Source: Apus apus (lineage: Eukaryota > Chordata > Aves > Apodiformes > Apodidae). From it: 64,000 nucleotides of DNA. Each line of letters opens with the position of its first letter. The stretch's first letter is position 1. Of the stretch, positions 40,801 to 64,000 are shown in pieces. The stretch covers positions 126,599,132 through 126,663,131 of the forward strand of contig NC_067282.1 in NCBI RefSeq assembly GCF_020740795.1. Direction: 5' to 3'. Below the pieces are notes generated by a model, which was given only the letters and a program-made list of their open reading frames with translations, was not told the origin of the DNA and ran no database searches. The position numbers and the translations under genes are program-made.

Positions 40801-43800
40801 CAGAGCCACAAAGATGATGAATGCAGTGGAATATCTCCCTTATGAGGAAAGGCTGAGGGAGCTGGGTCTCTTTAGCTTGGAGAAGAGGAGACTGATGGGA
40901 GACATCATTAATGTTTACAAATATGTAAAGGGTGAGTGTCAAGAAGATGGAGTTAAGCTTTTTTCAGTGATGACCAGTGATAGGACAAGGGGCAATGGGT
41001 GCAAACTGGAGCATAGGAAGTTCCACATAAACATCAGAAAAAAATTCTTTACTGAGAGAGTGACAGAGCACTGGAACAGGCTGTCCAGAGAGGTTGTGGA
41101 GTCTCCTCTGGAGACATTCAAAACCCGCCTGGACAAGTTGCTGTGTGATGTGCTCTAGGTGACCCTGCTCTGGCAGGGGGGTTGGACTAGATGATCTTTT
41201 GAGGTCCCTTCCAACCCCTAGGATTCTGTGATTCTGTGAACCATGGAGGTTGGAAAGGGCTTCTTGAGATCATCTGGCCAAGCACTGTCAGCTGGAGCAG
41301 GTTACACAAAATTATGCCCAGGCAGGTTTTTAATATTTCCAAAGATGGAGGAGACTCCACAACCTCACTAGGCAACCTGTAGTTGGCTTTCTGGGCTGCA
41401 AGCACACATTGCTGGCTCATGTTGAGCTTCTCATCACCCAATGCTCCCAAGTCCTTCTCTTTGGGGCTGTTTTAAATCCATTCTCTGCCCAACCTATATT
41501 TGTGCTTGGGATTGCCCTGACCCAGGTGCAGGACCTTGCACTCAGCCTTGTTGAACTTCACACAGGTCCCTCTGGATGGCTTATCTTCTGTCCAGCATGT
41601 TGACCACACCACACAGCTTAGTGTCATCAGCAAACTTGCTGAGGGTGCACTTAATCACACTGTCCATGTTGCTGACAAAGATGTTAAACAGCACCGGTCC
41701 CCGTACTGACCCTTGCAGAAGATCACTCACCACTGGTCTCCACTTGAATATTGAGCTGTTGACTGCAACTCTTTTGAGTGTGGCTGTCCAGCCAATTCCT
41801 TATCCACCAAGGGGTCCATGCATCAGGTCCATGTCTCTCTATTTTAGAGACCAGAATGTTGTGTGAGACAGTGCAGAACACTTTCCACAAGTGCAGGTAG
41901 ATGACATCAGTTGCTTCTCCCTTATCCAGCAATGCTGTATCCCCATCATAAAAGGACACCAAATTTGTCCAGCACAATTTGCCCTTAGTGAAACCATGCT
42001 GGCTGGCACCAATCGCCTCTTTATTTCCCCTGTGCATTAGTGCAGTTTCCAGGAGGATCTGCTCCATGATCTTACCAAGCACAGAGATGAGACTGGCCTG
42101 TGGTTCCCTGGGTCTTCCTTTTTTCCCTTTTTAAAAATGGGGGTTGTGTTTCCCATTTTCCAGTCAGTAGGATCTTCACTGGACTGCCATGACAACTATG
42201 ACTACCATGCAACTTCATCTGCCAGTTGCCTCAGGAGCTGTGATGTATCTTATCAGGTCCCATGGACTTGTACACCTTCAGGTTTCTTAGATGGTCTTGA
42301 ACTTGATCTACCCCTATCATGGGTGGTTCTGCATTCTCCCAGTCCCTGCCTTTGCCTTCTGAGACTTGGGTAGTGTGGTTTGAGCACTTGCCAGTGAAGA
42401 CTGAAGGAAAAAGTCATGGAGTACCTCAGCCTTCTCCATATCCTAGGTAATGAAGTCTCCTGTTTACTTCCAAAGAGGGCCCACATTTTCCCTAGTCTTC
42501 CTTTTGTTACCAGCATATAGAAGTTTTTCTTGTCCTTGATGTCCTTGGCTCTAATTCTATTAGGGCTTTGGCTTCCCTAACCCGTTCCCTGGCTGTTCAG
42601 ACAATTTCACTGTATTCCTTCCAGGCTGCCTGTCCTTGCTTCCACCCTCTGTAGGCTTCTTTTTTATCTTTGCGTTTGTCCAGGAGCTCCTTGCTCATCC
42701 ATTCAGATCTTCGAGTGTTTTTGCCTGACTTCCTGCTGGGATGCATCCCTCCTGAGCTTGGCGGAGGTGATCTTTGAACATTAACCAGCCTCCTTTTCCC
42801 TCCAGGGCTTTATCCCATGGTATTCTACCAAACAGGTTCCTGAAGAGGCCAGAGTCTGCTATCCTAATGTCCAGGGTAGTGAGCTTGCTGTGCACCCTCT
42901 TTGCTGCTCTAAGGATCTTGTACCACCTCATGGTCACTGCAGCATTTGCATAGAGGCATTTAAATCGAGTCCCCATTGAAGCTGACTTACTGGCTGAAGT
43001 TGCTTTGAAGTACATCACTGCTATTTTCCTTGTTGGCTCTTCCTACCTCAGGAACTCCTGGCTTATCTCCGTAAGTGTCATCCCACAGCTTGTCCCTCAC
43101 CCCACTCTGGTCTGGCAGTTTACTTTATTGCTCTTATTAGTTCATTTTATTCAGTAGGTGAAACACTTGCCAAACAGATTTTGTGAAACCTTTCTGAAAA
43201 CAGTATGCTATGGGGAGTAGAAATCTCTGCATGATTGCTGAGGTGAGGGGGTGGGGTGTGGAATTAAAAGGTAAAACTGATTTCACTGGAGTAATTATTA
43301 TTTCTGTAACAGAGGCTGAAACTTGTCCTTGTTGAAATATCAACTACTTGAAAATATGAGTGAAACGTGGATAGGACCTGAGTTGTGTCACTTAGAAATG
43401 GGTGTGGCCACATTCTTCTCATTTCCTGATGCTTACGGTTTGGGAGTATTGCTTAGAGACATGACAACTGCTACCACATTAATAAACTGTCCTGCAAAGG
43501 AAACAGGAGTTACGTGAGCTTTGTTATGCTCTGTGTGGAAGCAGCCCTTTGTAGAGTGAGAAACTGAACATAACGGGATTTTTCCCGAGGTTTCCTGTGG
43601 TGTGGGAACACCGGAGGAGCGAAGCGACCTGCCAGGAGCCGCGGCTCTTGCGGAACCCGCAATGGGCGCCGCCTCGCCTGCTAAGAGCGGTCCTGGGGGG
43701 CCCGCAAGCAGCGGCTGGTGCAGCGCTGGTGGGCGCCAGGGCTCGGCCGGGGAATGGGAGCATCCACCCGCCACAAAACTCTGGCCTCCCTCAGCTCTGT

Positions 43801-46800
43801 CACACTGCGGCTGATGCAGCTTCCCAGACTGAGCTCTCCTGGGAAAACGCTGCCATCCAGGTGTATGGCGACAGGGTGTAAGCGACTCACACACATGTAT
43901 GGTAGCGGTGAGCACAGCCTGTGGGAGCTGTGTCCAGGTGGAGGAACTCCTCCCCTCAGTAATGGAGCTTCCCGGGGGGAGGTGAGTAGGTGAAGAAGCA
44001 TCAGGCAGTGGGAGAAAGAAAGACCACTGGACTCACAGCCTACCGTCCCTGGCTGACAGGGCTCTCAGCACAGGAAAGTCCCTGTCCTCTCCTTGCCTGG
44101 GTGAAAGTGGTGACCTAGAGTCTGCTGCCTCCCTGAGGCCAGGGTTAAAGATGTTTGTAGAAAGATCCCTTCCTTAGTAAAGCCATCAAATTACTACCCA
44201 TTGTTAATCTTTCAGGTAGTGATGAAGTAGTGACAAGAAGTCCAAAGGCAATGAAGACTTCAGGAATACTTCAAGGAGGAACTCTTAAAGGCACAGGGGC
44301 AGGCCATCCCTAGGTCCTGAAAGATGAGCTGACGGGGAAGAAGACCAGCCTAGCTAAACAGAGAGTTTTGGCTGGACCTCAGGAACAAAATGGAAGTTTA
44401 TGGCCTTTGGAAAAGAGGGTTGGCAACTTATGAGGAATAGCAAGATGTAGTGAAGCTGTGCAGGTGGAAAATTAGAAGGGCCAAGGCTCAAGAAGAACTC
44501 TACTTGGCCACTTCTGTTAAAGACAACAAGAAGTGGATTTTTAGTATCTCATTAGAAAAAAAGGAAGACTAGGGAAAATATAGGCCCACTGATGAATGAG
44601 GTGGGCACCCTAGTGGTGGAAGATACAGAGAAGACAGTTACTGAATGCCTTCTTTGCTTCATTCTTCACTGCTAATGCTGTCCCTCGTGAATTCCAGACA
44701 CTGGAGGCAAGGGGAAAGGTCTGAAGAGAGGAAGACTTTCCCTCAGTAGAGGAGGACCAGGTTGGAGATGACTTGGTCAAACTGGACATCCATAATTCTG
44801 TGGTTCCTGATGCACCCATGAGTGTTGAGAGAACTATCAGATGTTGTTGCTGGGCCACTCCATCATCTTTGAAAGGTCATGGAGAATGGAAGAGGTACCT
44901 GAGGACTAGAGGAAGGTCAGTATCACTCATTCTTAAAAAGGGCAAGATGGAGGACCCAGGGAACTACAGGTTGGTTAGACTCACCTCTGTCCCTGGGAAG
45001 GTGAAAGAGCAACTCATTCTGGATGTCATTGCTAAACACGTTGAAGAACAGGCAGTTATTGTGAGTGGTCAACATGGATTTACCAAGGGTAAATCATGCT
45101 TGACCAATCTGCTAGCCTTCTATGACGTTCTAACTGGTTAGCTGGATGAGGGGAGAGCAGCAGATGTCATCTACCTTGACTTCAGCAAGGCTTTTGACAC
45201 AGCCTCCCATAACATCTTCATTAGGAAACTGAGGGAATGTGGGCTGGATGAGTGGACAGTGAGGTTGATTGAGAGCTCAGAGGGTTGTGATCAATGGAGC
45301 AGAGTCAAGTTGGAGGCCTGTAACCAGTGGAGTCCTCCAGGGGTCAATACTTGGTCCGATCTTGTTCAACATATTAATCAGTGACCTGGATAAGGAGACA
45401 GAGGGTATCCTCAGCAAGTTTGCTGATGATACCAAACTGGGAGGGGTGGCTGACACTCCAGAGGGCTGTGCTGCCATCCAGTGTGACCTGGACAGGATGG
45501 AGAGCTGGGCAGAGAAGAACCTACTGAGGTTCAACAAGGGCAAGTGTAGGATCCTGCACTTGAGGAGGAAGAACCCCATACACCAATATAGGTTAGGGGT
45601 GGACTTGCTAGAAAGCAGTTCTGAAGAGAAGGATCTGGGAGTCCTGGTAGATAGTAAATTATCCATGAGCCAGCAATGTGCCCTTGCTGCCAAGAAGGCC
45701 AATGAAATCCTGGGGTGCATAAGGAAGAGTGTGGCCAATGGGTAGAGAGAGGTCATTCTCCCCCTCTACTCTGCCCTGGTGAGGCCACATCTGGAATACT
45801 GCATCCAGTTCTGGGCTCCCGAGTTCAAGAGAGACAGGGAACTACTAGAGAGAGTCCAGCGGAGGGTGACAAAGATGTTTGGGGGATTGAAGCATCTCTC
45901 TTACGAGGGAAGGCTGAGAGAGCTGGGACTGTTTAGCCTCGAGAAGACAAGCCTCAGAGGAGACCTTATAACTGCCTACAAGTATCTAAAGGGTGTGTGC
46001 AAGGAGAATGGAGCCAGACTCTTTTCAGTAGTTCCAGTGACAGGACGTGGGACAGTAGGCACAAGCTGGAACATAAGTTTCATTTAAAGATGAGAAAAAA
46101 CCTCATTATGATGAGGCTGACAGAGCACTGGAACAGGCTGCCCAGGAGTCCCCTTCTCTGGAGTTATTCAAGACCAACCTGGCTGCAGTCCTGAGCAATG
46201 CGTTCTAGGGGATCCTGCTTTAGCAGGGGGGTTGGACTGGATGATCTCTAGAGGTCCCTTCCAACTCTGACAATTCTGTGTTTCTGAGGTAGTCCCATCA
46301 ATATTGAAAGACTGTGTTAAAATAAGTGTTTATCTGTCAGGTGATATAAAGTATCAAGTTATTAGTAACAAGGTGCAGTAAGCTCAAAATCTAGTCCACT
46401 TGAAAAGGAGGTAAAAGTTTCTGGTGGACACTTTTGTCTGAATCTCTCTGCCAAACTGCAGAGTATCCAAATTTTTACTGTCTTCCCTAGAGCTGTGCAC
46501 AAACAAGTGATAACTTCGTGAATTTCTCTCACCAATAATTCAGTGTATATACAATGCTAAAATATGCTCTAAAAAGCTTAGAGCAGTGAAAAGGCAAGAC
46601 AAACTATCCTTCTCTTGGTTCCGATTTTTTCTGAAGGTTGGGGTGGGGTCTGTTTCTGTCAGCTGTCTGACCTTCTGCTTAGAAGAGGCCAGAGAACTGT
46701 ACTTGTTATTTATCAACGCTATAACTACTTGAATTGCAGAATAGATTTAGCTATTCAAGAAACTTTTAAGTTGGCAAGGCAACTTTTAAGTTTTGTCTTG

Positions 46801-55800: not shown

Positions 55801-58800
55801 CATTTTGGCCTGCAGGCATTGATGGACCAGCTGCTTTCCTGAAATCAGAAGTGCAAGATTTGGGGACCAAGCTCCAAAATCTCTCTGCTGGATCTTCCCA
55901 AACAGAAAACAATACAGATCAGCAAAATGGAGAGGCTCTAACAGACACAGCAGGCAAGCCAGATCTGCAAGAAATCTTAGAGAAACGAGGTAAGAGTTGA
56001 CAATAGGCAAAGGTCTTTTTTGTGTTTATTCTACTTACATTATTTTTTTTCCGGTAGCTTAAAAAAACCCTAAAAAATATGAGGAATCATTAAACAAGTG
56101 TGTATAGGATATTATTTTCAAGAGTAGAGCTAGCAGATTCCACAGCATTTAGAAATGCAGAACTGCAGTTCCTCCTTCTAATATTACTTGGAACACACCA
56201 GTTATGTTTCAGAGGTTTATCGATTCATGTGTAGTTTCTGGCCTCTCCAGGGAAGTTGGTGACAGAATGCTATACTTCATATTTTGCTAAAGTTTGGGGT
56301 ATTCTTTTTCCAGATGAATTAGATCTGGATATGATGCCTGAATATTTTCACAACAGCAGAACCCTCTATAGCCAGTACATGCTGTAATTAAACTGTTTAG
56401 GAGTCTAACAGGAAACATGTCTCCCAGAGTCAGAGGTTGTCACAGTCAACAGTTCTAGAGTTTTATAGTCAATAGTTATATCCCATCAAGTAGTTTCCCA
56501 GTGGAAAGTTTCTCTCTCTGCCAAGAATCTTACATTGCTGCCAGTACCACAGGAAAACATTTTTTTGCATGCAGTGTAAGCATGTTGCAGCAAAATAATG
56601 GCTAGTGTTTAATACAGTACCCAGCTTGTTTTTACTCTGCAGAGCCTGTCTCAGAATGTTTCCAGTACACTACCTAAGGTACTACCCGAGGTAGAAATAC
56701 TTACATTCAGTTGTCAGATGCAACAGCTGCTTACCTATGGATGGCAACATTACACAAAACTTAGTAAAGGAAGCAGGAGAGAATATCCAGAAACTTAAGG
56801 GGAAATTAGTGGAGGTAGAATATAAACAGTGAATTTTGAAATTGGCTGGAGTACTAGGGTTAACGCCTTTCCTCTTTCCACATGTGCTTTGGGAAGTTTA
56901 CTGACGAGTTGTTAGGACTACATTTTCTGTTTCATCTGAGTCAAAGAACTTCCAGCAGTGCCTTTTCTATGCAGTGCCATGTTAGACCATTGTTATAATA
57001 TTGGCTCTCGGAAAATGATTCAGCTTAGACTGAGTGTGTTTTTTCTATAGTGCTTTATATGCTTTTCCATCCAAATTAAAGAATGGTCTCACAGAACAAG
57101 ATGATGAAGTTACAAGTGGAAGGAAACACCAGTGATAGTTAGAGAAGCTTTTTATAAGTGCCTTTATCCTGAGATTTTTTAGTTTTGTGCCCACAGTCAT
57201 CTCTACGTAACTGTGCTTAGGTTAAGATTAAATAGGTCCTGGCACTAGTCAGTCTGCGCTTCTGTTTTAAAACTCAAATAATTATTAGTATTCATGAGAC
57301 CGGAGTTATTGCTACTGATGTAAGAGTAGGAGGAGCTCTTACTGAAAAATTGTCATATGCATTTCAGTGTGTATAAGTCTTAAGGGGAAATAGTAAAGGA
57401 TGTAAAATTGTACAGAGTCTGACCTAGAGGATAGGTGTCAGCATTTTGATCTGGATTTCTTTTTTTTTAATTCTTAAGGCATGGAAGGCTTTTTTGCATG
57501 AAAATAGGCAAAATGGATTCAGTGGAAGCATATACTAAGCAATATGTTGTATCGTGTATCATAAAATAGGTATCAATAAAAGCCTGACAGCTGCTTAATC
57601 ATCTACACAGTGACAGCTGCAAAATGTCACTAGTGGTTTGGATTACAAGGCTTGGGAAGCAATATAGAACATGGGGAAAATCAGCAGATGAAACAACAGA
57701 AATTAATAAGGAGAACAAGAGCAGAATAGCTATGCAAGAGTCATGTATGAATTAGTGGTGCCATGAACTCGTGACAGCTTTTTTCAGAGGTTACCTGCTT
57801 TATCCTTTATTCTGACAGGAATTTCTGGCAGTTTGAATTTTGATGAGGAGGACACAGAAGAGGAAGAAACTAGTAAGAGACCAGCATATCACTCAAAGTA
57901 TCCTGAATCTGAGAGGCCTAGTTCTGCAACCAGTGAGAAATCTTTTGCAGTGAGTGTCTTGAAATGCATTTCTGATAAGAGCTGGGCATATGCTTGATTT
58001 TTAGTATTAACCCCATGAGCACTAGGTTAAAATATAGTAGTTGCAGCTACAGTATCTAGCATATTAATTCCTGAAGGCAGAAGAAGGCCGTGATTGTCAT
58101 GTTATCTGACTGAAAGACCATTGAGTTAAACACAAAGACCTAGTAATGATCAAAGGGAGCATGGTGGGTGGAGAAACTCAACTAGTCTAATCACTGAAGA
58201 CAGGAACACAATGATTCAGCTATTCTTATGACCTTCAAAAGAGACAGATTAGGCTATTGTTTCAGGTGTAAAATCCACCAAGATGACTCAGAAAAACTCT
58301 GAAATGCCATGCAAACTCAAGATAGATCACTACCTGAAGGTTTATAGTGTTTACTGTGGGATGTGAGGGGGAACAGAATTTTGGGATGGAACAAAGAATT
58401 TTGGGATGGAACAAAGAATTCTGGGATTTGACAAAACTTGTTACAGAGTGTTTAGAGGAAGGGACTCACCAGGGGAAAGAAAGGGTCAAGGTGCATCAGG
58501 GAGTAATAAGCACAGGAAAATAGACAGTAAAGGAGGTAAAAGGCAGCAGATGCATGTAAACAGTTGCAAGACAGTATGTTTTTCTGGCCAAGACCCAGTA
58601 TATTTGTGAGGTGACTGTGTGTTGTGCTACACCAGTAGGTGAGTAGTACAAGAAGTCTAGATGTTAGCTATTTGGGAGACTGGGCTATGGGTGTCAGATA
58701 TAGGATGGGAGGTGCTGGAGGCAGAAAGGGTGAGAGCCACTAGTGAATTTCAAGTCTCTGTGTATATTCAGACTTTCTACCGGCTGTACCTGGGAATGGG

Positions 58801-61800
58801 GATAAACCAACAACCTCATCTCTGAGGTCCAGTAAGGAAGGAATTTCCTGGGTTCTGCAATCCATGGAAGTCAGCTGCTTCTAAGAAAAATACTTTAATG
58901 ACCTAGACCAGATTTCCAATAGAATACCACTTCCTTTGGTGACCATAATTTGCATGCTGACTGTACATATTGGTTCTGAGGTTCTTCCAGCATTTAGTTG
59001 GGATGGCTCCACCCCCGGCTTACTTTGTTTCTCCAACTGTTCTGAAGCAATATAATCTTAGTGCTCCTTTCAGTCACACAAGTCCCAGCCTGTCTTACTG
59101 CATCATCCTGATGGATGCTTAAGCTTTTCATGCTGCCTCATTTCTCCACAGAGTCTGAAGCTCTAAAAGTAGAGATGCTCTTTGTTTAGAATGTTATTTA
59201 CAGTGTCTCATCCTGTTTTCCCCTTCCTAGCAATTAATTCATCTCTGATTAATGGGTACTTTTTCTCCCCTCCCCTTGGAGAGCTAGTCTTTCGTCAGAG
59301 TAAATGTTTGGCAACTTTATTCAGAGAAACACAGGTGGTCTCTTGTTTAACTTCCTTTTTACCAACTCTGTTCTTGAGACATGAGTTCTTCTGTTTCAAC
59401 AGACCTTTCTTTTCTTGGGGAGTACCAGAGCCTCTGATCTGATATTAATTTGCTAATATGATGCTTTTTCCCACAGGAAACAGGTGCTTCCTGTAGTCCA
59501 TCCCCTCAGGCAGATGCACAGATGGGAGAAGTAGAGAACTTAGAGGATTTTGCATTACGCCCTGCACCCCGTGGTGTTACAGTCAAGTGTCGAATCACTA
59601 GAGATAAGAAGGGAATGGACCGGGGCCTCTTCCCTACTTACTACATGCATCTGGAAAGGGATGACAACAGAAAGGTACTGGAAGCAGCACACAGTGTATT
59701 GGCTTTTGTACTGCTATCACAGAATATATTTGGTGTATGGGAGAGCTTCTGGTAAGAAACCAGAAGCTGAGGAGAGCTAGCATGCAGATGAGGACAGCTT
59801 ATATTTGGCTAAGGCACTGGGGAGGGAATTAGCAGGTTTAAAAGCCATAATACTATGAAATATGACATTTAAAAAGTATAAAAATTTAAAGGATAAAGAA
59901 GAGCAGGGAGTCTGAGCTGCTTCAGAAGAAAAGGAGGGAAGACTAGAAAGGACAGTTGCTTTAAATCTAGACTGCCAAGTGAGGTGATTAGAGGAACAGA
60001 ATTTCAGGATATGCACTTGTGGAAGAGATTGAAATTGTGAAGACATTAATAACATCACAGAACAAAAAGGGGAATGGGTGCAGGAAATAGAGAGAGAACA
60101 TTTTGATAGCAATGCCTAGCAATGCCACTGCATTCTTACAAAGATCCAGTCTTGATCAAAGTTTTCTATTTCCAGACATTCCTTCTTGCAGGGAGAAAAC
60201 GAAAGAAGAGCAAAACATCCAATTACCTCATATCAGTTGACCCAACTGATCTATCCCGGGAAGGGGAAAGTTTCATTGGGAAACTCAGGTGAGAACCATA
60301 GATGAGAACTAGAGATTGGAGAGACTGGATTTGCATTTTATTTGAGTTGGGTTTAAGAACAGCAATCTGGTATCAACTCAGAAAGAATGGACTTGCATTG
60401 TTCTACTTAATGTAATCTTTATTCACCTGGGCTGGCAGCCTTTTTTAAGTGTTGCCATTCACTGTGGCAATTCAAAGAAGGAATTATGGATTGAAGCTTT
60501 TCCTAGATGGGTTACAGATTCAGTTCCACCTCCTGTGGAAGCTCCTTACTGAGCTGGCAATATGTAGATTCAGATCGCAAGTGTTTTCACTGTGCTGGAC
60601 AAGTATCTTCGGAAAATGCCAATAATTTCCACTTATGCCTCTCTCTCTCTTTCTTTTGATAACCTGACATTCATACTCCCTCAGGACTTGCTCTAGTGGG
60701 CATGGTGGGTGGTGTTATATTGTTGTTTATTTGTTTGGAGGGGGGTGTTGTTGGTTTGTTGCTGTTGTTCTTGTTGTTTTCCTCCTGGGTGAACAGTTGG
60801 ACTCAGTAATCTTTGAAGTCTTTTCCAACTGTGACAATTCTGTGATTAGGTCAAACCTCATGGGAACTAAATTTACAGTCTATGACCATGGAGTTAGCCC
60901 AGTCAAGGCACAAGGTCTAGTGGAAAAGGCTCATACCAGACAGGAGCTTGCAGCTATTTGTTATGTAAGTAGTGCCTCTCCTCTTTCACCCCTTTGTTTT
61001 TTGTCACCTGGTTGAGTTTACAAAATTATTGGCAGCCACCCCCACTTAACTTTGGAACCAACTACCAGTTTCAACCAGATACGTCAAAGGCTTCAAATAT
61101 CAGTTCTTACAAATTCAATGAGGGGAAAAAAAAAAAAAAAAAAATCAATGCCAGGGAAGAAGAAAGACCCAAACTAGCATCCTGATGACCTTCTTACTTG
61201 GCCTATTCAGCATGAGGCCAGTTGGCATACCCTTTACATGGAGTCAGCCACAGCATGAACAGCCTCTTGCCCAGCTGATATCTGGTGAACACCAAGAAGG
61301 AACTGGGAATACCCTATGAAGAAGAGTTATTTTTTGCAGAACCAAAGGCATTTTTGTAGATAGGAAGGAGCTGATATTATTTTAATAGCATCTTGTTGTT
61401 GGTAAGGATTTGGTTCCAGGGGAAAACATGACTTGCTAATACCTACAGAAGAACATCATTCTTGGGAACATTTTCACCTAAATGGTGGTATATGTATAAT
61501 GTAAGACTTAGGTCAAAAATATATTTGCCTTTTATCAAACTTAAGGCTTGTCCACTAGTAGGATTTTAGCACATTTTTGCCTCAGATGCAAAAACTTATG
61601 CCTGGAAATTGCACTTGTCTGATTTTGTTATAAATGTTTCATTAGGATTAACGGATGCACTCTAAATTAGGTAGTACTCTGTATGTCTCTTAATCAGTTC
61701 TCAAAATGGGAGAGAAAGCTGTTCTTTGGGATTAAACATTAAGCATATAAATAACTTCTACAACAATCATAGCTAGCCAATCTCTAAAAAACAATATAAA

Positions 61801-61987
61801 TGTGGATTCAAAGTCAGTTTTGCTATCTTTCCTTCTTTGAGATAGATTATCTCATTTACGGAAAATAATGTATTTCCTTGTCTTTCAGGAAACCAATGTG
61901 TTAGGATTCAAGGGTCCCAGAAAAATGTCTGTGATCATCCCAGGAATGAATATGAATCATAAGCGAATTCCAATCCGTCCACGAAGT
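34780..61987 (+). CDS. TULP3: TULP3, tubby-like protein 3 (exons 1-9; 3' end beyond window)
   Basis: TULP3 couples IFT-A to PI(4,5)P2 membranes, carries receptors into cilia and restrains Hedgehog signalling. Nine coding exons (34780-34820, 49520-49571, 53747-53909, 55816-55989, 57819-57949, 59477-59674, 60176-60288, 60850-60964, 61889-61987) join in phase for 362 codons. Domains: IFT-A-binding N-terminal region about residues 18-60 ([31 protein letters not shown]); acidic linker 60-205; tubby domain from about 205 ([75 protein letters not shown]). Lys and Arg of GKLR (human K268/R270, phosphoinositide contacts) are kept. The last exons, including the human SLLSRWQN segment, are off the right edge. 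Intron 1 is 14.7 kb and full of CR1 copies. Confidence 0.96.
35131..39805 (+). other. TULP3: TULP3 intron 1, proximal part
   Basis: 4.7 kb of AT-rich unique sequence. It contains an ATTAAA hexamer at 35158-35163 followed by GT-rich DNA, which could end RHNO1 transcripts, and a T run (37937-37953). No exon or repeat family recognised. Confidence 0.5.
39806..41238 (+). mobile_element. CR1 LINE, 5'-truncated, young (reverse transcriptase to tail)
   Basis: Begins in ORF2 (GAGGTGCCTGAGGAGTGGAG). The RT frame is open for about 300 codons with [14 protein letters not shown] and [20 protein letters not shown], but the catalytic FADD reads FADG. A 5-base loss relative to the copy at 63040 (GTTCTCCCTCTATTG against GTTCTCCTTCCCCTCTATTG, near 40698) shifts the frame, and the remaining codons continue at 40740-41155 ([22 protein letters not shown]). 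Ends in GGATTCTGTGATTCTGTGA. Same subfamily as the copies at 6229 and 63040. Confidence 0.95.
41239..43095 (-). mobile_element. CR1 LINE, antisense, endonuclease-to-3' end
   Basis: Read on the minus strand it runs from CR1 endonuclease/linker sequence (about 43095) through reverse transcriptase (for example [20 protein letters not shown] at about 41940) to the 3' UTR at 41239. It is older than its neighbour, with many frame breaks. Its tail meets the tail of the plus-strand CR1 at 41238, giving a tail-to-tail pair. Confidence 0.88.
43580..46290 (+). mobile_element. CR1 LINE with ORF1 remnant, internally deleted
   Basis: 44140-44250 matches the CR1 ORF1 esterase region ([16 protein letters not shown]-like in degenerate form, then [13 protein letters not shown]). 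From about 44270 it jumps to the segment before the reverse transcriptase, then RT ([58 protein letters not shown], catalytic box FADDTKLGG retained), and the 3' UTR ends CAATTCTGTGTTTCTGA. Several stops and shifts break ORF2. The 5' limit is uncertain: a CpG-rich patch at 43580-43770 is most simply its 5' region. Confidence 0.85.
46291..49519 (+). other. TULP3: TULP3 intron 1, distal part
   Basis: 3.2 kb of AT-rich sequence with no exon or repeat family recognised except the G homopolymer at 48502-48529. Confidence 0.5.
48502..48529 (+). repeat. (G)28 homopolymer
   Basis: Twenty-eight consecutive G residues flanked by AAAAC and AAAGG, read directly. It could form a G-quadruplex in DNA or in the nascent TULP3 pre-mRNA. 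Lies 1 kb before exon 2. The length in the assembly may be inexact, since such runs sequence poorly. Confidence 0.95.
49520..49571 (+). CDS. TULP3: TULP3 exon 2
   Basis: 52 bases, TTTCCCAG|C to CAG|GTAAAT. Encodes [17 protein letters not shown], against human VFHEEMMKMRQAKLDYQ, the start of the IFT-A-binding helix. Confidence 0.95.
52120..52216. repeat. T/G-rich low-complexity tract
   Basis: Irregular TTTGGTT/TTGTTGG units with T runs. Resembles tracts at 60716-60785 and, on the other strand, 23605-23725. Confidence 0.8.
53095..53167 (+). mobile_element. CR1 tail fragment
   Basis: TTTTTAAGGTCCCTTCCAAC, CCAAACCATTCTATGATTCT. Only the last 60-70 bases of a CR1 are recognisable. Confidence 0.85.
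53747..53909 (+). CDS. TULP3: TULP3 exon 3
   Basis: 163 bases, TTCACAG|AGA to CATG|GTAAGT. Encodes [28 protein letters not shown] and [12 protein letters not shown], the basic conserved N-terminal motif of tubby family members. Confidence 0.96.
55816..55989 (+). CDS. TULP3: TULP3 exon 4
   Basis: 174 bases, CCTGCAG|GC to CGAG|GTAAGA, phase 1 both ends. Starts GIDGPAAFL as in human GIDGPAAVL, then a fast-evolving Ser/Gln/Glu-rich linker. Confidence 0.93.
57819..57949 (+). CDS. TULP3: TULP3 exon 5
   Basis: 131 bases, CTGACAG|GA to GCA|GTGAGT. Encodes [17 protein letters not shown] and [11 protein letters not shown], against human SVNFDEETD and ERPNSASSQNS. Acidic linker before the tubby domain. 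Confidence 0.93.
58371..58430 (+). repeat. Short tandem repeat of a ~20-base unit
   Basis: Three adjoining units of the form GAACAAAGAATTTTGGGATG, the first lacking two bases and the third with a T-to-C change. Confidence 0.85.
59477..59674 (+). CDS. TULP3: TULP3 exon 6 (start of tubby domain)
   Basis: 66 codons, CCCACAG|GAA to AAAG|GTACTG, phase 0. Encodes [20 protein letters not shown] and [19 protein letters not shown], the first strands of the tubby barrel. Confidence 0.97.
59675..60175 (+). other. TULP3: TULP3 intron 6
   Basis: 500 bp, purine-rich in the middle (59880-60110). No element recognised. Confidence 0.55.
60176..60288 (+). CDS. TULP3: TULP3 exon 7
   Basis: 113 bases, TTTCCAG|ACA to CTCAG|GTGAGA. 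Encodes [31 protein letters not shown] and IGKL. The Arg codon of the phosphoinositide-binding GKLR is split with exon 8 (AG|G). Confidence 0.97.
60289..60849 (+). other. TULP3: TULP3 intron 7
   Basis: 560 bp ending in a T/G-rich tract (60716-60785) and a CR1 tail that provides the 3' splice site of exon 8. Confidence 0.65.
60793..60847 (+). mobile_element. CR1 3' tail forming the TULP3 exon 8 splice acceptor
   Basis: CAGTTGGACTCAGTAATCTT, TGAAGTCTTTTCCAACTGTG, ACAATTCTGTGATT matches the CR1 3' end (GGTTGGACTCGATGATCTT, GTCTTTTCCAACC, ATTCTGTG octamers). It stops 2 bp before exon 8, so TCTTTTCC is the pyrimidine tract and ATTAG the acceptor. Confidence 0.85.
60850..60964 (+). CDS. TULP3: TULP3 exon 8
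   Basis: 115 bases, GTGATTAG|G to TTAT|GTAAGT. Encodes [20 protein letters not shown] and [11 protein letters not shown]. The acceptor lies 2 bp after the end of a CR1 tail (see mobile element 60793-60847). Confidence 0.96.
60965..61888 (+). other. TULP3: TULP3 intron 8
   Basis: 920 bp of unique AT-rich sequence, with an A run of 19 at 61126-61144. Confidence 0.55.
61126..61144 (+). repeat. (A)19 homopolymer
   Basis: Nineteen A residues after GAGGGG. I see no retroposed gene ending here. Confidence 0.9.
61889..61987 (+). CDS. TULP3: TULP3 exon 9 (last in window)
   Basis: 33 codons, CTTTCAG|GAA to CGAAGT|GTGAGT, phase 0. Encodes [20 protein letters not shown] and [11 protein letters not shown]. 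Confidence 0.97.
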
Positions 61988-63039
61988 GTGAGTTAAAGAG
62001 TTTGGTTATGTTCCAGATTGGAGGAGGAGGCTAAAACTTTCCCATAGAGGTCTGGTTGTTACTGACAATCAGAGTTTTTAGAACAAGGTTGCTAATACCC
62101 AAGGCTTTAGCAAGTCTCTTGGAGAGTAAATACAATGTAGCCTAAAGGTGTGAATTTGTTCTTGCCTTTTTCCTAATTTGTAGCATTGTGAATAATGGTC
62201 GTATCCTTACGTGTCCTTTGGTCATCCTAAATGTTATTTGCTATTTGCTATTATCCTAAATTGTTATTTGCTCCTAAATGTTATCTATTGCTAGTGTGTG
62301 TTGTTGCTGTTGTGTCTACAACCCCTCCTCATTGGAGGAGAACCTGTTATTTGAGAGATGAACACTGAACAAACTTGCTTCTCCTGGGAGATTAGATTCT
62401 TAATCAGTATATGAATTACAACAGATAGATAATAGATAAGGTGGTATAGGACAAGGGGCAATGGTTTGAAGCTTAAAGAGGGGAGATTCAGGTTGGACAT
62501 TAGGAAAAAGTTCTTTCCTGTGAGGGTGGTGAGATGCTGGAACAGGTTGCCCAGGGAGGTTGTGGTTTCCCTATCCCTGGAGGTCTTCAAGACCAGGTTG
62601 GATGGGGCTTTGAGCAACATGGCCTAGTGGGAGGTATCCCTGCCCATGCAGGGGAGTTGGAACTAGATGATCTTCAAGGTCCTTTTCAACTCAAACCATT
62701 CTATGATTCTATGATTCTATGATTATGGTGTAGTAGCAAGAGAGTAAAAATATTTTTGACAAGAACATTGTTAGTGTCAGTAGGAATTGAGAGGATTCTT
62801 TAAGGAGAAAGTGGAATGAGGAGAAGGATGGAGTTTTGTGATAACTATTTAGTAAGGATTTCTCACACATATGGTGGATGTTACAATCAAAAGCTTACTG
62901 AACTGTATCTGAAGATATATTAAGATATATGATGAAAATTGTTCCATATATATATATAAAATTATATTTGCAGCCATATTGTGAGTAGATATGAGTAGGA
63001 CAAGGGTGTATTTGTTTAGGTCAGAGAAAAAGACTTCAA
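61988..63039 (+). other. TULP3: TULP3 intron 9, part
   Basis: Unique sequence around the CR1 fragment at 62440-62727, with a short (TA)n run near 62948. The next TULP3 exon is not reached. Confidence 0.5.
62440..62727 (+). mobile_element. CR1 LINE 3' fragment
   Basis: AGGACAAGGGGCAATGGTTT, TTCAGGTTGGACATTAGG, GGAACAGGTTGCCCAGGGAG, GAACTAGATGATCTTCAAGG, then three ATTCTATG octamers. A 5'-truncated copy in the TULP3 intron after exon 9. Confidence 0.94.
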
Positions 63040-64000
63040 GTCTCCCACAGCATCCTTGTAGATAAGTTGATCAAGTATGGGTTTGATGATCAGGCAGTGA
63101 GGTGGATCAAGAACTGGTTGAAAGGAAGAAGTGAGAGAGTTGTAGTCAATGGGGCAGAATCTAGTTGGAGGCCTGTGACTAGTGGAGTCCCTCAGGGGTC
63201 GGTACTGGGACCGGTGTTGTTCAACATCTTCATCAACGACCTGGATGAGGGCACAGAATGTACCCTCAGCAAGTTTGCTGATGACACCAAGCTGGGAGGA
63301 GTGGCTGACACACCAGAAGGCTGTGCTGCCATTCAGAGAGACCTAGACAGGCTGGAGAGTTGGGCGGGGAAAAACCTGATGAAGTTCAACAAGGGCAAGT
63401 GTAGAGTTTTGCATTTGGGGAAGAAAAATGTCATGCACCAGTACAGGTTGGGGGCTGACCTGCTGGAGAGCAGTGTAGGAGAAAGGGACCTGGGGGTCCT
63501 GGTGGGCAGGAGGATGACCATGAGCCAGCAATGTTCCCTTGTGGCTAAGAAGGCCAGTGGCATCCTGGGGTGCATTAGAAAGGGTGTGGTTAGTCAGTCA
63601 AGAGAGGTTCTCCTTCCCCTCTATTGTGCATTGGTGAGGCCGCATCTGGAGTACTGTGTCCAGTTCTGGGCCCCTCAGTTCAAGAAGGACAGGGAACTGC
63701 TTGAGAGAGTCCAGCACAGAGCCACAAAGATGATTAAGGGAGTGGAACATCTCCCTTATGAGGAAAGGCTGAGGGAGCTGGGCCTCTTTAGTTTGGAGAA
63801 AAGGAGACTGAGAGGTGACCTCATCAGTGTTTACAAATACATAAAGGGTGAGTGTCAAGAAGATGGAGTTAAGCTTTTTTCAGTGATGACCAGTGATAGG
63901 ACAAGGAGTAATGGGTACAAATTGGAGCATAGGAGGTTTAAGGTGAATATCAGAAAAAATTTTTTTACTGTGAGAGTGACAGAGCACTGGAACAGGCTGC
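63040..64000 (+). mobile_element. CR1 LINE, young, open reverse-transcriptase frame, cut by window end
   Basis: 5'-truncated within the RT domain ([20 protein letters not shown]). From 63043 the frame is open to the window end, about 319 codons, with [20 protein letters not shown], catalytic [40 protein letters not shown] and TEHWNRL. Near-identical by eye to the copy at 39806. Lies in the TULP3 intron after exon 9, same strand as the gene. Confidence 0.94.

What the first reader, a model, noticed from the sequence alone, without database searches (positions are those of the whole stretch)
60793..60855. A CR1 retroposon tail supplies the 3' splice site of an ancient TULP3 exon
The 55 bases before TULP3 exon 8 read as the end of a CR1 LINE (GTTGGACTCAGTAATCTT, TCTTTTCCAAC, ATTCTGTGATT), and the element ends 2 bp before the exon. 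Exon 8 encodes tubby-domain sequence found in human TULP3 and completes the split Arg codon of the phosphoinositide-binding GKLR, so the exon is old while its pyrimidine tract and probably branch region are transposon-derived. A T/G-rich tract (60716-60785) directly precedes the CR1. This is replacement of a constitutive acceptor, not creation of a new exon.
Basis: partly seen in the sequence, partly recalled or inferred. Interest (0 to 1): 0.75.

Follow-up and report, generated by a model that had tools for sequence, protein, structure and literature searches.

The report
CR1 retroposon splits TULP3 splice acceptor
In what looks like a bird genome, a jumping-gene fragment landed two bases before an old exon of the cilia gene TULP3, apparently pushing the original splicing signals 167 bases away, so a working gene would need splicing signals from the fragment or would take the fragment into its protein.

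Summary
Own-genome copies align to 60681-60847 (167 bp). The T/G-rich tract is therefore CR1 sequence, not host DNA in front of it. The copy is 5'-truncated, sense-oriented, and ends 2 bp before exon 8, an ordinary TULP3 tubby-domain exon. Two paralogues (read as TUB and TULP1) share this intron position and have normal acceptors.

Joining the flanks (60680 + 60848) gives a good acceptor, so the CR1 seems to have landed between the old pyrimidine tract and its AG. The final AG is host sequence.

AG 60848-60849 gives normal TULP3. Its branch point would have to lie in CR1, and it scores poorly (70th percentile of AGs; seven other acceptors 96-99.7). AG 60683-60684, CR1's first, follows the old branch-point motif, scores at the 97th percentile, and would add 55 in-frame codons beside phosphoinositide-binding Arg270. 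Such an open frame also occurs in 8 of 48 other copies, so it proves nothing.

I favour the normal junction for functional mRNA. RNA would decide and was unavailable. No other vertebrate could be searched to date the insertion.

The parts
60176..60288 (+). TULP3 exon 7 (ends GKL plus first two bases of the split Arg), donor AG|GTGAGA; start judged by eye from the reading frame
   Evidence: exons 7 and 8 joined read [13 protein letters not shown]...GKLRSNLMG without a stop
60604..60680 (+). Remnant of the presumed pre-insertion acceptor region: AG-free stretch with CCTCTCTCTCTCTTTCTTTT tract and CTGAC branch-point-like motif (A60667)
   Evidence: no AG between 60603 and 60683; joined to 60848 the acceptor scores 4.0, 97th percentile; branch motif ranks first of those scored
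60681..60847 (+). 5'-truncated CR1 LINE 3' end, sense orientation, including the T/G-rich segment
   Evidence: own-genome copies share these ends
60683..60684 (+). First AG of the CR1: candidate alternative acceptor, in frame, +165 nt
60711..60788 (+). T/G-rich, length-variable segment of this CR1 subfamily (edges approximate)
   Evidence: same kind of segment in all 24 copies printed
60793..60832 (+). CR1 tail hairpin, 9-bp stem ACAGUUGGA/UCCAACUGU; AG 60795 lies in the stem, AGs 60805 and 60817 inside it
   Evidence: folding energy not better than shuffles
60803..60837 (+). Approximate region for the branch point if AG 60848-60849 is used (AG-exclusion-zone rule): candidates A60809, A60816, A60828, A60834
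   Evidence: AG positions, motif scores, rule from PMC1431707 (passages)
60848..60849 (+). Host-derived AG of exon 8
   Evidence: not part of CR1 in the alignment
60850..60964 (+). TULP3 exon 8 (115 nt), donor TAT|GTAAGT
   Evidence: phmmer to TULP3 8fh3_I E 3.8e-13, tubby chains E 4.8e-10

Best explanation
A 5'-truncated CR1 LINE inserted in sense orientation between the pyrimidine tract and the AG of the TULP3 exon 8 acceptor. It moved the old branch point and tract 167 nt upstream and left the host AG next to the CR1 tail. Functional TULP3 mRNA is most likely made by splicing exon 7 (60288) to exon 8 (60850), with branch point and pyrimidines supplied by the CR1 tail (branch A within about 60803-60837; tract TCTTTTCC at 60819-60826). 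The consensus donor GTAAGT of exon 8 and the CR1 hairpin, which holds three competing AGs, may help the weak acceptor. Shown: the element, its ends, the gene context, the AG positions. Inferred: pre-insertion state, branch-point use, hairpin role, junction use.
For: CR1 identity and ends. Joined flanks give an acceptor at the 97th percentile. Two paralogues have ordinary acceptors at the same intron position. Open frames with later tubby-domain sequence follow, with exons judged by eye to start at 61889, 65473 and 66177, the last ending ...SKLACE; the gene therefore looks functional and needs an exon 8 junction. Exon 8 is 115 nt, so skipping it would shift the frame. The AGs at 60739, 60795, 60805 and 60817 all lead to early stops. 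The copy lacks the AG at 60814-60815 that 22 of 24 copies keep.
Against: The junction acceptor scores -3.7 (70th percentile of 5600 AGs); five other TULP3 acceptors plus those of two paralogues score 3.5-8.5. AG 60683-60684 scores 4.0 and is in frame. The score matrix uses recalled human frequencies over 20 nt and ignores a displaced tract. Hairpin energy is no better than shuffles, and the 150-nt and 261-nt minimum-energy folds do not keep it. The tail shows no clear extra conservation (focal copy 4th of 25 on tail-minus-front divergence). The missing AG at 60814-60815 may be chance (2 of 24 copies also lack it).
Confidence: 0.6

Rival explanations
1. Exon extension: the old branch point and tract are still used, and CR1 merely supplied a new AG (60683-60684). 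Exon 8 becomes 280 nt and TULP3 gains 55 CR1-encoded residues between Arg270 and Ser271, as the main or a regular minor isoform.
For: First AG downstream of the old branch-point motif (17 nt after A60667), score 4.0 at the 97th percentile; 165 nt, in frame, no stop. The spliceosome's strong preference for the first AG after the branch point is stated in PMC7317903 (passages).
Against: In-frame and open in 8 of 48 other CR1 copies, so chance is about 17%. 15 differences from the family majority fall 5/5/5 on codon positions, so no coding constraint is seen. The insert would put a mostly hydrophobic 55-residue stretch in the tubby domain beside a residue needed for phosphoinositide binding.
Confidence: 0.22
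2. The insertion damaged the acceptor, and TULP3 in this animal is hypomorphic or decaying, or the insert is a rare allele in the assembled individual.
For: Weak acceptor; the old acceptor is cut in two; TEs near exons, acceptors above all, are greatly underrepresented in human and mouse introns (PMC3088655, abstract start and passages).
Against: The TULP3 exons looked at are open (exons before 59477 not checked). The focal CR1 differs from the family majority at 5 of 98 sites or 10 of 115, so it is not a brand-new insertion unless its source copy already carried those changes.
Confidence: 0.08
3. A branch point upstream of the tail (in the T/G segment or the old site) is used with AG 60848, the CR1 hairpin hiding the AGs between.
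For: A perfect 9-bp stem holds AGs 60795, 60805 and 60817; six core stem pairs kept in 34 of 49 copies.
Against: AGs at 60683, 60695 and 60739 lie outside the stem and stay exposed for the old branch point; folding z-scores of the five short stretches are -0.59 to 0.10 and of the 261-nt stretch 1.41.
Confidence: 0.08

Closest known systems
TE exonization, including CR1 exonization in chicken (Sela et al. 2010, PMC2911107; passages and section 7 read)
   Same: TE near or in a gene supplies splice signals; 70 chicken exonizations reported, most from CR1
   Different: Here the exon is old and the TE sits in the acceptor of an existing exon; whether any CR1 sequence enters mRNA is unknown
TE insertions close to splice acceptors (Zhang et al. 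2011, PMC3088655; abstract start and passages)
   Same: Retroposon within 20 bp of an acceptor
   Different: Reported in mammals as underrepresented and, in these zones, more often disruptive; here the insertion sits in an apparently intact gene
Distant branch-point exons and AG exclusion zones (Gooding et al. 2006, PMC1431707; passages)
   Same: Old branch-point motif and tract now lie far upstream of the exon
   Different: The region between contains several AGs, so by that rule the old branch point should not serve AG 60848

Membership tests
CR1 LINE (avian) | 3' tail matching other CR1 tails (GTTGGACT...TTCCAAC...ATTCTRTGATT) | tested here: met
   41.8 bits, E 4.1e-12 against a profile of 8 other window copies; that these tails are CR1 is recalled, no call names the family
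CR1 LINE (avian) | relatives run upstream into the end of CR1 ORF2 / 3' untranslated region | tested here: met
   upstream flanks of most of the 24 copies, by eye, share ...CTGGAACAGGCTGCCCAGGGAGGTGGTGGAG...; I read this as the WNRLPREVV end of ORF2, as in the ORF at 62436-62627 beside another tail
CR1 LINE (avian) | frequent 5' truncation | tested here: met
   focal copy stops matching at 60681 while the family majority continues
CR1 LINE (avian) | little or no target-site duplication (recalled) | tested here: inconclusive
   no duplication visible by eye between ...ACTCCC and AGGTC; no empty site available
TE exonization | TE sequence included in mature mRNA | not testable with these tools
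   no RNA data; an in-frame candidate exists
TE-derived replacement of a constitutive acceptor | exon older than the TE insertion | tested here: met
   exon homologous to TULP3 and tubby structures; same intron position in two paralogues
TE-derived replacement of a constitutive acceptor | TE-derived branch point / tract used in vivo | not testable with these tools
   inference from AG positions only

The most novel reading that the evidence does not exclude
The CR1 turned one constitutive acceptor into a paired acceptor: the old branch point with a CR1-supplied AG makes a TULP3 with a 55-residue CR1-encoded insert beside the phosphoinositide-binding Arg270, while CR1-tail signals make normal TULP3. 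A lineage of birds would thus have a TE-built choice between a lipid-binding and an altered ciliary adapter.
Probability: 0.2. Interest if true: 0.65.

Novelty: new variant of a known kind. Interest (0 to 1): 0.45.

Why it matters
TE insertions near acceptors are usually seen as harmful or as sources of new exons. Here the presumed old acceptor, the inserted element and the surviving AG can all be read in one sequence, in a ciliary gene whose checked exons are open. It makes a clean test of how an acceptor survives being cut in two, and of whether avian CR1 3' ends can act as ready-made acceptors.

Tried and rejected
Rejected: a separate host T/G tract before the CR1 (the segment is in 24 of 24 copies kept). 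Rejected: my first idea that TTTTCCTCCTGGGTGAACAG at 60777-60796 was the old acceptor (it is CR1 sequence). Rejected: coding constraint on the CR1 frame. At the 98 sites, 4 of 5 differences fall on third codon positions (positions), but over 131 sites the split is 5/5/5. The focal copy is the least diverged of 25 rows (5/98), but the copies were picked by similarity to it, so I draw no claim from this.

Correction made: I first scored the exon 7 acceptor at the wrong AG (6.4). The proper one gives 3.5.

Dropped rows: of loci L001-L035, two are the focal site, three are duplicates and six (L002, L003, L007, L008, L027, L030) do not span both ends, leaving 24. Of the 30 loci, one is the query's own site and two repeat earlier copies, leaving 27. 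Of these 51 copies, three could not be anchored in the frame control, leaving 48, and two in the stem count, leaving 49.

Led nowhere: Rfam (0 matches); viral and bacterial/archaeal contigs for a TULP3 relative (none). The own-genome protein search for exons 7-8 listed six matches, two exons each at three loci, and no joined retrocopy. Folding z-scores showed no unusual stability. Paper searches for CR1 and splicing, TE-supplied branch points (36), exon extension (60; 10 of 32 papers listed) and TULP3+chicken+CR1 (61) listed nothing on this case by title and abstract start. No Pfam search was made.

Full report
What is there. Exon 8 of TULP3 (60850-60964) matches the 442-residue TULP3 chain of PDB 8fh3 (E 3.8e-13) and tubby (E 4.8e-10). 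The match begins at residue 271 of that chain, so the split Arg is residue 270, one of the K268/R270 pair of human TULP3 (442 aa) whose double mutant cannot bind phosphoinositides (PMC9444247, passages). Exons 7 and 8 join in frame. Later tubby-domain exons, judged by eye to start at 61889, 65473 and 66177, lie in open frames, the last ending ...SKLACE. Their joins were not translated, and exons before 59477 were not checked.

The CR1. Eight other CR1 tails were taken from the window and made into a profile. It scores the focal tail 41.8 bits (E 4.1e-12); the best hit in 100 random sequences was 14.1 bits. Searching the own genome with 560 bp of intron 7 gave 40 scored places, a capped list, of which 39 are other sites. 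Of these 39, 27 start at query 392 (60681) and all end at 553-559 (60842-60848). That query stopped at 60849; queries running into exon 8 also end mostly at 60847. Of 35 loci held, 24 distinct copies span both ends. In all 24 the T/G-rich segment is present, with variable length. Most, by eye, continue upstream into shared sequence that the focal copy lacks, and about half continue downstream with a further CTGTG unit where the focal copy has AG|GTC. So the insert is a 167-bp 5'-truncated CR1, sense to the gene, ending two bases before the exon.

The old acceptor. Removing 60681-60847 joins ...TGCCTCTCTCTCTCTTTCTTTTGATAACCTGACATTCATACTCCC to AG|GTCAAACC. This has an AG-free stretch back to 60603, the best branch-point-like motif of those scored (CTGAC; crude recalled weights), and an acceptor score of 4.0, at the 97th percentile of 5600 AGs. 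No duplication or loss is needed, though a small loss cannot be excluded. Two paralogues in the same genome, which I read as TUB and TULP1 from their sequence (no call names them), split the same Arg codon at the same place and have ordinary acceptors scoring 6.1 and 6.3.

Two ways to splice. Of the AGs from 60566 to the exon, those at 60683, 60695 and 60848 keep the frame open. AG 60848 scores -3.7 (70th percentile), against 3.5-8.5 (96.4-99.7) for five other TULP3 acceptors plus the two paralogues. The matrix is built from recalled, approximate human frequencies and sees only 20 nt; a 10-of-12 pyrimidine window does exist starting at about -29. Because the next AG upstream is 60817, the exclusion-zone rule (PMC1431707, passages) places the branch point at about 60803-60837, inside the CR1. 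AG 60683 scores 4.0, lies 17 nt after the old branch-point motif, and would add 165 nt, 55 codons without a stop. As a control, 8 of 48 other CR1 copies would also be in frame and open at the same place, so this is no proof of use. Differences from the family majority fall 5/5/5 over codon positions, so nothing points to selection for a protein.

Hints on mechanism. The focal copy lacks an AG at 60814-60815 that 22 of 24 copies have; this removes one competing AG but may be chance, as 2 of 24 copies also lack it. The CR1 tail can form a 9-bp stem that holds the three frame-breaking AGs nearest the exon. Six core pairs are kept in 34 of 49 copies, as a CR1 feature. Folding energy does not exceed shuffles; the 62-nt and 111-nt folds keep the stem, while the 150-nt and 261-nt minimum-energy folds do not. 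This is a suggestion only.

Age. In the two best-aligned segments the focal copy differs from the majority at 5 of 98 sites; with a different set of columns, at 10 of 115. With recalled avian neutral rates near 2-3e-9 per site per year this suggests very roughly 15-45 million years. The copies were chosen by similarity to the focal one, so this is loose. No other vertebrate genome could be searched.

Literature. Sela et al. 2010 (PMC2911107, section 7 read) report 70 chicken exonizations, most from CR1. Zhang et al. [quoted passage not shown] The searches (10 of 32 papers listed) listed nothing that, by title and abstract start, describes a CR1 that took over the acceptor of an old exon, or this TULP3 case; subscription journals are mostly not held.

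Verdict. The CR1 very likely split an old acceptor. Which AG the cell now uses is open, with the normal junction more likely because the gene looks functional and the alternative would disturb the tubby domain.

Noticed in passing
62995-63999 (+): A 335-codon open frame that I read as a CR1 ORF2 C-terminal piece, running off the window end, sense, in the TULP3 intron after the exon at 61889.
   Followed up: no
44725-46087 (+): Several frames that read as a broken CR1 reverse transcriptase, upstream of a CR1 tail at 46231.
   Followed up: no
41181-41275: A CR1 tail on + followed at once by a weaker CR1 tail match on - (15.4 bits), a tail-to-tail pair.
   Followed up: no
58375-58427: A 20-bp tandem repeat, 2.7 copies, 96% matches, upstream of the TULP3 exon at 59477.
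   Followed up: no
60711-60788 and copies in L010-L067: This CR1 subfamily carries a T/G-rich 3' segment whose length varies strongly between copies.
   Followed up: partly
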